38,253 nucleotides of DNA. Source: Streptosporangiaceae bacterium (GTDB lineage: Bacteria; Actinomycetota; Actinomycetes; Streptosporangiales; Streptosporangiaceae). Where the stretch lies: the NCBI GenBank assembly GCA_019246795.1, contig JAFAPY010000123.1, forward strand, positions 1 to 38,253, read 5' to 3'. Below are positions 18,478 through 37,703 of the stretch, piece by piece (within the stretch, counting starts at the first letter, position 1; the number at the start of each line of letters is the position of its first letter). The position numbers and the translations under genes are program-made. The notes under the pieces were generated by a model. The model searched no databases and was not told the DNA's origin. It saw only the letters and a program-made list of their open reading frames with translations.

Positions 18478-18495
18478 TGCCTCCTCGTCCCTGCC

Positions 18496-18548
18496 CAGTG
18501 CTTTCTGGAGCGCGCGTCGGCAAGCCCGCCGCGCGGCCGCTCAGGCAC
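18496..18548. repeat. Diverged single copy of the dispersed hairpin repeat also found at 35791-35893
   Basis: CAGTGCTTTCTGGAGCGCGCGTCGGCAAGCCCGCCGCGCGGCCGCTCAGGCAC aligns with the 48-bp repeat unit; the same hairpin arms CGCGCGTCGG / CCGCCGCGCG are kept. Confidence 0.8.
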
Positions 18549-34363: not shown

Positions 34364-35824
34364 ATGCCTGTGGAGTGGTCCGGTTTGGCCCCGGAGGTCC
34401 TGCTGACGATCGACCGCCGGGCCACGGTCCCGTTGCGGTCCCAGCTGGAGGACCAGTTCCGGCAGGCTATCCGGTCTGGCCGTCTGGGCGCCGGGGAGCG
34501 CGTGCCGTCCTCACGCGCGCTGGCCGGGGCGCTGAGCCTGTCCCGTGGCCTGGTGCAGGAGTGCTACGCGCAACTGCAAGCCGAGGGCTACCTGGTCACC
34601 CGCGGCGGCTCAGCCACCCGGGTGGCCGCGGCGGCAACCCGGGCCGAACCGGCGCAGGATGTGCCGCCGTCCCGGCCTGCCCCGATGGTCGCCGACTTCC
34701 GGTCCGGCGTACCCGACCTCGGCTCATTCCCCCGCCAGGCCTGGGCATGGGCGATCCGGGAGGCATGCCGGGCCGCGCCGAACACCGACCTTGATTACGG
34801 TGACCCGGCGGGAAGCCCGCGGCTGCGCGAGGTGCTCGCCGCCTACCTGAGGCGGGTCCGGGCGATGGACACGACGGCCGACCGCCTCATCATCTGCTCC
34901 GGGATGGCCCAGGGCCTTGGCCTTGTCCTCCGCGTCCTGGCCGGCCACGGGCTGCGGCGGGTCGCCTGCGAAGACCCTGGCGGGACCGCCGACATCACCG
35001 CCGCCGCACACCACGCCGGGGTGCAGGCCGTCCCGGTGCCCGTCGATGACCGCGGCATCGACGTGGCCGCGCTGGACGCCAGCGGGGCCGGGGCGGTCGT
35101 GCTCACCCCGGCACACCAGTGGCCCACCGGCGTGGTCCTCGCCCCCGAACGCCGCCTGGACCTCATCGACTGGGCCGCCCGCCGGGACACCTGGATCATC
35201 GAGGACGACTACGACGCCGAATTCCGCTACGACCGCGAGCCGGTCGGCGCCATCCAGGGCCTGGCACCGGGCCGGGTGATAACCCTGGGCACGGTCAGCA
35301 AATCCCTCGCGCCGGTGCTGCGGCTGGGCTGGATCGCCAGCCCGGCCATCCTCACCGCGCACCTCACCGAGGCCAAGCGGCTGACCGACCGCGGATCCCC
35401 CGGGCTTGACCAGCTCGCCCTCGCCGTCCTCATCGAAACCGGCCGGTACGACCGGCAGCTCAGAAAGATGCGCGCCTCGTACGCAGCCCGCCGGGAAACC
35501 CTCGTCCAGGCCCTCGCCCAGGCTGCCCCCGCCGTGACACTGACCGGGCTGGCCGCCGGCTTTCACGCCGTCGCGCACCTGCCCCCGCCGGCAGCCGAGC
35601 ACGCCGTCATCACCGCGGCCACAAACCGGCGAGTCGGGCTCTACGGCATGAGCGCCTACCGGTCCAGCCACTCCCCGCAGCCGCCGCAACTGGTCCTCGG
35701 CTTCGGCAACACCAGCCACCACGCCATCCGCGCAGGCGTCGCCGTGCTCGCCGACATCCTGGACAACCCCGGGATCACCGGCGGGCGGCCGCTCAGTGCC
35801 TCCCGGAGCGCGCGCGTCGGGTAA
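34364..35824 (+). CDS. MocR/PdxR-type GntR-aminotransferase fusion regulator
   Basis: PLRSQLEDQFRQAIRSGRLGAGERVPSSRALAGALSLSRGLVQECYAQLQAEGYLVTRGGSAT then aminotransferase-I-like domain with IIEDDYDAEFRYDREPVGAIQGL and TVSKSLAPVLRLGW. Confidence 0.95.
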   Translation: MPVEWSGLAPEVLLTIDRRATVPLRSQLEDQFRQAIRSGRLGAGERVPSSRALAGALSLSRGLVQECYAQLQAEGYLVTRGGSATRVAAAATRAEPAQDVPPSRPAPMVADFRSGVPDLGSFPRQAWAWAIREACRAAPNTDLDYGDPAGSPRLREVLAAYLRRVRAMDTTADRLIICSGMAQGLGLVLRVLAGHGLRRVACEDPGGTADITAAAHHAGVQAVPVPVDDRGIDVAALDASGAGAVVLTPAHQWPTGVVLAPERRLDLIDWAARRDTWIIEDDYDAEFRYDREPVGAIQGLAPGRVITLGTVSKSLAPVLRLGWIASPAILTAHLTEAKRLTDRGSPGLDQLALAVLIETGRYDRQLRKMRASYAARRETLVQALAQAAPAVTLTGLAAGFHAVAHLPPPAAEHAVITAATNRRVGLYGMSAYRSSHSPQPPQLVLGFGNTSHHAIRAGVAVLADILDNPGITGGRPLSASRSARVG

Positions 35825-35893
35825 GCCGCCGCGCGGCCGCTCAGTGCCTCCCGGAGCGCGCGCGTCGGGCAAGCCGCCGCGCGGCCGCTCAGT
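35791..35893. repeat. 48-bp tandem duplication plus 7-bp partial third copy of a hairpin-forming repeat
   Basis: GCTCAGTGCCTCCCGGAGCGCGCGCGTCGGGTAAGCCGCCGCGCGGCC (35791-35838) and the same with CAA for TAA (35839-35886), then GCTCAGT. Confidence 0.95.
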
Positions 35894-37490
35894 CCCAGAT
35901 CGGCTGCGTGGCCTCCCGGACGTTCCCGTCCGGCGTGAAGATCAGGAACCGCTCGAACGACCGCGCGAACCAGCGGTCGTGCGTGACGGCGAGCACCGTG
36001 CCCTGGTAGGACTCCAGGCCCTGCTGCAGCGCCTCGGCGCTTGGCAGGTCGAGGTTGTCGGTGGGCTCGTCGAGCAGGAGCAGCGTGGCGCCGGCCAGCT
36101 CGAGCAGGAGGATCTGCACCCTGGCCTGCTGGCCGCCGGACAGCGTGCCGAACGGCTGGCGGGCGCAGGCTTGCAGTTCATACCGGGCCAGGGCGGCCAT
36201 GGCCTCGTTGATGAGCAGCGCGTGCTCGGTCATCAGGATCTCGGCCAGGGTCCTGCCCTCGAGGTCGGGCCGGGCGTGAGTCTGCGCGAAGAAACCGGGC
36301 ACGACCCGTGCGCCAAGCCGCGCCTCGCCATCATGCGGCACCTGCTCCCCCGCGAGCAGCCGCAGGAAACTCGACTTCCCCGACCCGTTCGCGCCGAGCA
36401 CCGCCACCCGGTCGCCGAACCAGATCTCTGTGCCGAAGCAGCCCGTGGTACCGGTCAGCGTCAGCTTCTCGCAGATCACCGCGCGCTTGCCGGTCCGGCC
36501 GCCGCGCAGTCGCATCCTGACGTTCTGCTCCCGCGGCGCCTGCTGCGGCGGGCCCTGTTCCTCGAACCTGCGCAGCCTGGTCACCGCGGCCTGCAGCCGG
36601 GATGCCATGTCCGAGTTGTAGGAGGCCTTCTGCCGGTAGGTCCGGACCAGCTCCTTCAGCTTGTCGTGCTCCTCGTCCCAGCGGCGGCGCAGCTCCTCCA
36701 GCCGGCTGATCCGGTCGGCGCGCGCCTGCGCATAACCGGCGAAACCGCCGCCGTGCACCCACACGTGCCGGTCCTCGACGGTGACGATGCGCTGCGCGCA
36801 CGCCGCGAGCAGTTCCCGGTCGTGGCTGACCAGCAGCACGGTCTTCGGCGTCACCGCCAGCTGCTGTTCCAGCCAGCGCTTGCCGGGCACGTCCAGGTAG
36901 TTGTCGGGCTCGTCCAGCAGCAGCACGCCATCCGGCCCGCGCAGCAGCGACTCGAGCACTAGCCGCTTCTGCTCCCCGCCAGACAGCGTGCTCACATCGC
37001 GCCACCGGCACTGGTCGTACGGGATGCCGAGGGCCGCGACGCAGCAAGCATCCCAGTGCACCTCGGCCGCGTACCCGCCTGCCTCGCCCCATCCGGCCAG
37101 CGCCGCCGCGTAGCGCAGCTGGGTGCGTTCATCGTCTCGCTCCATCATCGCCAGCTCGGCGGCGTCCAGCCGCCCCGCGGCCTCCCGCACCCGAGGCGCA
37201 GACACCGACAGCAGCAGGTCGCGCACCTGCCGGGTATCGTCGCCGGCCCGGCCCCCGCCGATGAACTGACGCATCACCCCCAAGCCGCCGGTCGCAGCGA
37301 CCGTGCCTGACTGCGGCTGGATGTCCCCGGCGACCAGCCGCAGCAGCGTGGTCTTGCCCGCGCCGTTCGGCCCGACCAGAGCCGCCGTGACTCCTTCGCC
37401 GACCCGGAAGCTCACGTCATCGAGCAGCGTCCGCCCATCAGGCAACACGTGGCAGACGTGGGCGACCTCGACATACCCCGAGGAACTCAC
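35889..37490 (-). CDS. ABC-F family ATPase (two ABC domains, no TM)
   Basis: ALVGPNGAGKTTLLRLVAGDI, STLSGGEQKRLVLESLLRGPDGVLLLDEPDNYLD; second VLGANGSGKSSFLRLLAGE, GTLSGGQQARVQILLLELAGATLLLLDEPTDNLD; GTG start inferred at 37490. Confidence 0.95.
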   Translation of the reverse strand: MSSSGYVEVAHVCHVLPDGRTLLDDVSFRVGEGVTAALVGPNGAGKTTLLRLVAGDIQPQSGTVAATGGLGVMRQFIGGGRAGDDTRQVRDLLLSVSAPRVREAAGRLDAAELAMMERDDERTQLRYAAALAGWGEAGGYAAEVHWDACCVAALGIPYDQCRWRDVSTLSGGEQKRLVLESLLRGPDGVLLLDEPDNYLDVPGKRWLEQQLAVTPKTVLLVSHDRELLAACAQRIVTVEDRHVWVHGGGFAGYAQARADRISRLEELRRRWDEEHDKLKELVRTYRQKASYNSDMASRLQAAVTRLRRFEEQGPPQQAPREQNVRMRLRGGRTGKRAVICEKLTLTGTTGCFGTEIWFGDRVAVLGANGSGKSSFLRLLAGEQVPHDGEARLGARVVPGFFAQTHARPDLEGRTLAEILMTEHALLINEAMAALARYELQACARQPFGTLSGGQQARVQILLLELAGATLLLLDEPTDNLDLPSAEALQQGLESYQGTVLAVTHDRWFARSFERFLIFTPDGNVREATQPIWD

Positions 37491-37703
37491 GGAGGGACAG
37501 TATCCATCAGGCCGCCGCGCACACAACGCGATTTCCCTCCGGGTCCACCGAGGAAGTCGCCCACGCCTCGTCATACTCCAGGCGGGCGCTTGCTGACCGC
37601 GGACGCGGTGGCGCCCCAGCCAGCTGCAGCCCTGCCGCTGGCGTGCGCTGCGGCTCGGTCGCTTCAGCGTCTCGTGCCGCGGTCGCCATGCGCTGACGGG
37701 CAG

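What the first reader, a model, noticed from the sequence alone, without database searches (positions are those of the whole stretch)
18496..18548. Diverged copy of the same repeat 17 kb away suggests a dispersed hairpin element
CAGTGCTTTCTGGAGCGCGCGTCGGCAAGCCCGCCGCGCGGCCGCTCAGGCAC, in the divergent hmgA/HAD intergenic region, aligns over about 50 bp with the 35.8 kb repeat. The hairpin arms CGCGCGTCGG / CCGCCGCGCG, including the same T:C mismatch, are identical, while the 5-nt loop differs (CAAGC versus GCAAG). Conserved arms with a changed loop in two unrelated contexts (divergent promoter region; convergent 3' ends) fit a REP/MITE-like family better than coincidence, although GC-rich low complexity makes some similarity cheap.
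Basis: partly seen in the sequence, partly recalled or inferred. Interest (0 to 1): 0.6.

Follow-up and report, generated by a model that had tools for sequence, protein, structure and literature searches.

The report
Stop-codon-hugging 48-bp mobile hairpin repeat
The 50-bp hairpin is a decayed copy of a repeat present more than 150 times in this uncultured soil actinobacterium, a tiny mobile element that inserts as exact 48-bp units, most often immediately after the stop codons of genes; the repeat kind is familiar, but its stop-codon preference and missing transposase are unusual.

Summary
Window 18494-18544 is a decayed copy (55.7 bits, E 2e-10, not in the model's training set) of a 48-bp repeat that also forms a two-unit array at 35792-35887. 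The genome (a MAG, family Streptosporangiaceae) holds at least 153 matches; I recovered 103 arrays with 168 units. Six other genomes of the family carry a few copies. Nine units from seven genomes share an irregular stem-loop with variable loop and variable fixed-length linker. Same-genus orthologs show empty sites at ftsX, an asnC-like gene, hemK, an epimerase gene and hmgA/HAD, so units inserted precisely. About half of the arrays abut a gene's stop codon exactly: 40 of 67 non-coding sites against 13-17% expected from the target motif alone (p<1e-13). Seven more sit in frame inside genes. Distinct units also insert at unit junctions, giving mixed tandem arrays. The REP/MITE-like reading is supported in kind, but RAYT mobilisation is not: no Y1 transposase found, no GTAG/CGTC tag, head-to-tail arrays. 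Best explanation: a recently active, non-autonomous palindromic element targeting (C)TGA|G, mobilised in trans by an unidentified enzyme and tolerated mainly at 3' gene ends. Enzyme and function are unproven.

The parts
18494..18544 (+). Decayed single unit of the 48-bp repeat (2-nt stem deletion, 1-nt deletion and 1-nt insertion near the loop) in the divergent hmgA/HAD intergenic region
   Evidence: CM hit 55.7 bits E=2e-10; Smith-Waterman 41.5 vs shuffle maximum 24; orthologous region of G001 and G014 lacks it
35785..35791 (+). Partial unit end GCGGCCG at the ragged left edge of the array
35792..35839 (+). Unit 1 of the tandem array; its C31->T change makes TAA at 35822-35824, the stop of the plus-strand GntR/aminotransferase ORF 34364-35824
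35840..35887 (+). Unit 2 of the tandem array (same CCTCCC box as unit 1, i.e. a local duplication)
   Evidence: 83.9 bits; box identity
35888..35892 (-). Terminal CTCAG; 35889-35891 is the TGA stop codon of the ABC-F type gene 35889-37574 (minus strand)
   Evidence: the G001 ortholog ends at the same codon...WD TGAG, without repeat
35854..35890 (+). Hairpin GGAGCGCGCGCG-T-CGG/loop/CCG-C-CGCGCG-GC-CGCTC of unit 2; two bases of the stop codon lie in the base of the stem

Best explanation
It is a lineage-specific family of very short, non-autonomous, palindromic mobile elements. Gene-sense unit: (TGA)|GCGGCCGCGCGGCGG-loop-CCGACGCGCGCGCTCC-RGNNNR-CACTGA|G, 48 bp. Shown: units inserted precisely at a pre-existing (C)TGAG-like site and leave TGAG on both sides, so each copy carries a new target, and arrays are head-to-tail, built by further insertions as well as by local duplication; insertions concentrate exactly at native stop codons, in one orientation, and the unit is open in five of six frames, so it can also sit in frame inside genes. 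Inferred: an enzyme acting in trans recognises the irregular hairpin (T:C mismatch, GC bulge) and cuts at TGA|G a fixed distance away; copies survive where they do least harm, i.e. after stop codons. Inferred consequence: a strong hairpin whose base includes the stop codon should affect translation termination or mRNA 3' ends of the host gene, as described for REPs within 15 nt of a stop codon.
For: Copy number and family. Empty sites in the same-genus genome G001: ftsX (ATC TGAG TGCCGG.. vs ATC TGAG[48 bp]GTTGC..), an asnC-like gene, and 11 of 17 aligned orthologs ending at the same codon; hemK and epimerase; hmgA/HAD. Exact stop overlap in 46 of 90 assessable arrays; 40 of 67 non-coding sites vs 13-17% expected from TGAG/CTGA/CTGAG occurrence. 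TGAG at 11 of 17 orthologous stops vs 23% of stops in the host's gene set. In-frame insertions in seven genes in four frames. Mixed arrays: adjacent boxes identical 32, different 29, chance identity 0.056. Stem constant, loop and linker variable across 7 genomes. Low divergence of the hairpin part, 1.1%, fits recent spread.
Against: No mobilising enzyme was found: no Y1/RAYT, only group II intron maturase-type RTs, and no longer element with these ends near the arrays. Hairpin energy is not better than shuffles of the same composition, and compensatory change is limited to one pair, so recognition of the fold is inferred from the conservation pattern. Left edges are ragged, which a clean cut-and-paste does not predict. 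Gene calls are home-made.
Confidence: 0.72

Rival explanations
1. A host-selected 3'-end signal: the hairpin is kept after stop codons because it ends transcripts, protects mRNA 3' ends or tunes translation termination, and spread by recombination; mobility is incidental.
For: Half of the arrays sit exactly at stop codons in one orientation, more than target motif occurrence predicts. At co-directional sites arrays avoid tight gene spacings (10% under 20 bp vs 38% background). The stop codon lies in the stem base.
Against: In-frame copies inside hemK, epimerase, GNAT, glycosyltransferase, rsmI and others, copies in promoter regions such as 18494, near absence from close relatives, no U-tract, and no significant excess at convergent gene ends (p=0.22).
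Confidence: 0.15
2. A REP family mobilised by a RAYT (Y1) transposase; the enzyme is lost or in the unassembled part of the genome.
For: Architecture (short linker, conserved GGAG at the 5' foot, irregular hairpin) resembles IS200/IS605 ends and REPs (from memory); the genome is only about 92% complete.
Against: No PF01797 in the genome; no GTAG or CGTC tag outside the stem; head-to-tail arrays instead of HH/TT dimers (PMC3733652).
Confidence: 0.08
3. MIRU/VNTR-like minisatellites that only expand and contract in place by slippage.
For: 32 of 61 adjacent unit pairs share the same variable box, so local duplication occurs.
Against: About 100 unrelated loci, empty sites in relatives, and mixed arrays with distinct boxes need dispersal.
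Confidence: 0.03
4. Chance similarity of GC-rich low-complexity DNA.
For: High GC makes short matches cheap; the hairpin is not more stable than shuffles.
Against: Score 41.5 vs shuffle maximum 24, at least 153 matches vs none or a few in 342 relatives.
Confidence: 0.005

Closest known systems
REP sequences / GTAG and CGTC super-families (RAYT-associated)
   Same: Short irregular hairpins in high copy, mostly extragenic, some intragenic; some E. coli REPs lie within 15 nt of stop codons and are reported to stall ribosomes (PMC12306157, PMC3733652)
   Different: 48-bp head-to-tail arrays, no GTAG/CGTC tag, no Y1/RAYT found, and exact overlap with the stop codon at half the loci versus about 11% within 15 nt for E. 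coli REPs (PMC12306157)
MIRU (mycobacterial interspersed repetitive units)
   Same: Actinobacterial 40-100 bp units in small tandem arrays dispersed over dozens of loci (PMC2734929); from memory, MIRUs overlap stop/start codons of flanking genes
   Different: No sequence comparison was made; here a strong hairpin, insertion after stops of convergent genes as well as in co-directional gaps, empty sites, and in-frame copies inside genes
Rickettsia palindromic elements (RPE)
   Same: Palindromic repeats found both between genes and fused in frame inside conserved protein genes (PMC2229807)
   Different: RPEs are 105-146 bp; here 48 bp, tandem, several reading frames used, stop-codon target
IS200/IS605 single-strand transposon ends
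   Same: Target tetranucleotide - fixed linker - foot motif - irregular hairpin layout (resemblance from memory)
   Different: No Y1 transposase found; not demonstrated

Membership tests
REP (GTAG/CGTC super-families) | Unpaired GTAG or CGTC tetranucleotide at one end of the hairpin | tested here: not met
   Consensus has GGAG at the 5' foot, partly inside the stem; CGTC occurs only inside the hairpin (definition from PMC3733652)
REP (GTAG/CGTC super-families) | Associated RAYT (Y1 tyrosine transposase), for GTAG type | tested here: not met
   PF01797: no match in own genome; controls rang. Genome about 92% complete
REP (GTAG/CGTC super-families) | High-copy short hairpin, mostly extragenic | tested here: met
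   At least 153 matches; irregular 14-bp stem; 67 of 80 classified arrays outside coding sequence
REP (GTAG/CGTC super-families) | Dimers predominantly head-to-head or tail-to-tail | tested here: not met
   Arrays are head-to-tail with a 48-bp period
MIRU-like dispersed minisatellites | 40-100 bp units, tandem, at dozens of dispersed loci | tested here: met
   48 bp, 103 arrays with 1-4 units recovered; strain-level copy-number variation not testable here
MIRU-like dispersed minisatellites | Sequence homology to mycobacterial MIRU | not tested
   No MIRU sequence was compared
RPE-like palindromic elements | In-frame insertion inside otherwise conserved protein genes | tested here: met
   Seven genes, Pfam domains recognised in the five tested, two with empty orthologs
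MITE | Non-autonomous element with terminal inverted repeats and target-site duplication, related to a full transposon | tested here: inconclusive
   Hairpin arms act like inverted repeats and TGAG flanks both sides, but deviating right edges (TTA) mostly keep TCAG on the left, so it is not a simple duplication; no parent transposon found near arrays
Known structured RNA | Match to an Rfam family | tested here: not met
   No match at 18.5 kb; at 35.8 kb only a chance hit far below threshold

The most novel reading that the evidence does not exclude
A new class of mobile DNA that uses stop codons as its landing site: an unidentified, non-RAYT machinery inserts 48-bp hairpin units directly after TGA, in gene orientation, re-forming the target each time so that arrays grow at 3' gene ends, with a fixed-length hypervariable linker between hairpin and cut site.
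Probability: 0.3. Interest if true: 0.75.

Novelty: new variant of a known kind. Interest (0 to 1): 0.55.

Why it matters
Short palindromic repeats are common but their movement and site choice are rarely visible. Here same-genus empty sites, mixed arrays and about 100 loci in one genome show precise insertion with a target, (C)TGA|G, that coincides with translation stops well beyond motif frequency. If mobility is confirmed, it gives a testable case of how a sub-50-bp element without a RAYT spreads, of how stop codons become safe havens, and of how a hairpin rooted in the stop codon affects expression of core genes such as ftsX, gyrB-like, prs-like and sucD-like genes. It also warns that MAG contigs of this lineage often break at these arrays.

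Tried and rejected
A fuzzy-regex scan timed out. Exact-pattern scan of viral contigs: nothing. RAYT/Y1 search: nothing. Reverse transcriptase as mobiliser: two RT matches on one contig that holds none of the listed arrays; the one read in full is a group II intron maturase, no link shown. Search for a longer element with split ends near arrays: only truncated or internally deleted units. Hairpin free energy as evidence: not informative at this GC. Terminator reading: no U-tract and no significant convergent excess. Polarity of subfamilies within mixed arrays: CTGTCT rightmost 6, leftmost 2, too few to conclude, and no divergence gradient. Papers on stop-codon-inserting repeats in actinobacteria: none found in the held library.

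Full report
What was checked. A covariance model of 22 units from elsewhere in the genome, not including the 18.5 kb copy, finds 18494-18544 at 55.7 bits, E=2e-10, as the second-best hit of the window. A local alignment score of 41.5 compares with a best of 24 in 100 dinucleotide shuffles. The copy is decayed: two stem bases and one loop base are missing and one C is extra, which explains the apparently different loop.

How many copies. The window is contig 322 of a 4.28 Mb, 424-contig genome. A DNA query gave 47 matches, the covariance model 153, with output limits reached. Fetching about 5 kb around every listed site gave 103 arrays with 168 units: 61 arrays of one unit, 24 of two, 13 of three and 5 of four. 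Several contigs end in an array, so longer arrays may exist. In 343 genomes of the family only seven, this one included, match at E<=1e-7; the model finds one copy in G001 (same genus), six in G014, two in G036 and one in G035.

Anatomy. In plus orientation a unit reads CTCAGTGYNNNCYGGAGCGCGCGCGTCGGGCAAGCCGCCGCGCGGCCG, followed by CTCAG. Positions 15-51 form a stem with a T:C mismatch and a two-base GC bulge. Within the genome the stem, mismatch and bulge are almost invariant, whereas positions 8-11 and 13 are hypervariable with an invariant C at 12. Among nine units from seven genomes the stem is kept, and both the loop and the 5-6 nt linker vary; 99.2% of pair cells are standard pairs, with one compensatory pair. 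Energy alone does not support the hairpin because sequence of this composition folds anyway.

Where it sits. A three-periodic coding model classified the flanks. In 46 of 90 arrays with enough flank, the neighbouring gene reads towards the array and its stop codon is the terminal CT(C/T)A of the array; the orientation is the same in all of them by construction of this test. With a separate gene caller, 40 of 67 non-coding arrays are at stops, while TGAG, CTGA or CTGAG motifs outside coding sequence are at stops in 13-17% of cases (binomial p<1e-13). At co-directional sites arrays avoid tight gene spacings. In relatives, OsmC-like (G035) and PyrH-like (G118) genes also end at the element (gene names by eye).

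Empty sites. Orthologs in G001 of 17 genes with abutting arrays lack the repeat; 11 end at exactly the same codon and 11 have TGAG as stop context (23% of stops in the own genome). At ftsX and at an asnC-like gene the intergenic DNA beyond the array aligns directly to the bases after TGAG in G001, so the gain is one precise 48-bp unit with TGAG on both sides. Some genes (e.g. the one at L118) have a shorter C-terminus than the ortholog, so a minority of stops may come from the element. The divergent hmgA/HAD region is present without element in G001, and in G014 the same flank (CTGCCTCCTC ... CATGTAACCAC) is present without it.

Inside genes. Units lie in frame in a GNAT acetyltransferase, a HemK-like methyltransferase (two units), an NAD epimerase, a glycosyltransferase, an RsmI-like methylase, an FUSC-like membrane protein and a cyclase/ATPase regulator (Pfam for the first five; the last two named by eye). 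G001 orthologs of hemK and the epimerase lack the insert. Frames +0, +1, +2 and -2 are used; frame -1 contains the TGA.

How arrays grow. Of 61 adjacent unit pairs, 32 share the same box and 29 differ, against 5.6% identity for random pairs. So both local duplication and insertion of distinct family members at unit junctions are indicated. Left edges carry partial units of 0-32 nt; right edges are mostly sharp at TCAG. When right edges deviate (TTA) the left edge mostly keeps TCAG, so the left TCAG seems to be part of the element.

Interpretation. The simplest account is a non-autonomous mobile palindromic element that inserts at (C)TGA|G and re-creates this motif. Stop-codon bias beyond motif frequency may be target preference, selection against other intergenic positions, or selection for an effect; these are not separated here. 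The 1.1% divergence of the hairpin part suggests recent spread. The mobilising enzyme is unknown: no Y1 transposase, only group II intron-type RTs.

Comparison. The element works like REPs in being a high-copy hairpin near 3' ends (PMC12306157 cites that REPs within 15 nt of a stop stall ribosomes), like MIRUs in forming small dispersed tandem arrays (PMC2734929), and like RPEs in being tolerated in frame (PMC2229807). It fails the REP definitions of tag, dimer orientation and RAYT (PMC3733652), so it is not filed as a REP. No Rfam family matches.

Limits. The genome is a fragmented MAG, copy counts are lower bounds, gene calls are home-made, ortholog comparison is with one same-genus genome, and no strain-level data were available.

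Noticed in passing
window 35822-35824: A C-to-T change in unit 1 creates TAA, which is the stop codon of the plus-strand GntR/aminotransferase ORF 34364-35824, so both convergent genes appear to end inside the same repeat array.
   Followed up: partly
G000 contig 162 (L221 1114-2919, L222): Two reverse transcriptase matches on one contig; the one read in full is a group II intron maturase (RVT_N, RVT_1, GIIM). No link to the repeat shown.
   Followed up: partly
Unit positions 8-11 and 13, all arrays: A 5-6 nt linker is hypervariable (40 types in 157 units) with an invariant C at position 12, in an element whose hairpin part is about 1% diverged; types are inherited in subfamilies (CTGTCT in 20 arrays). 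The cause is unexplained.
   Followed up: partly
L048 (G014 contig 443): A three-unit array with CTCTCTG instead of CTCAGTG boundaries, i.e. without the TGA stop, in another genus.
   Followed up: no
L039 (G048 contig 173, about 1450-1700): An apparently different GC-rich dispersed repeat (GCTCGCTGTTCGCGGCCGCTTGGACGCGGCGGCTTCCTTCGTC, twice in about 200 bp) in a relative.
   Followed up: no
L171 '-' strand 4611, L172 + 4977, L096 left edge: Units with the hairpin precisely or nearly deleted (TCAGTGCTGTCTGGAGCG^CGGCCG), as expected from replication slippage across a hairpin.
   Followed up: no
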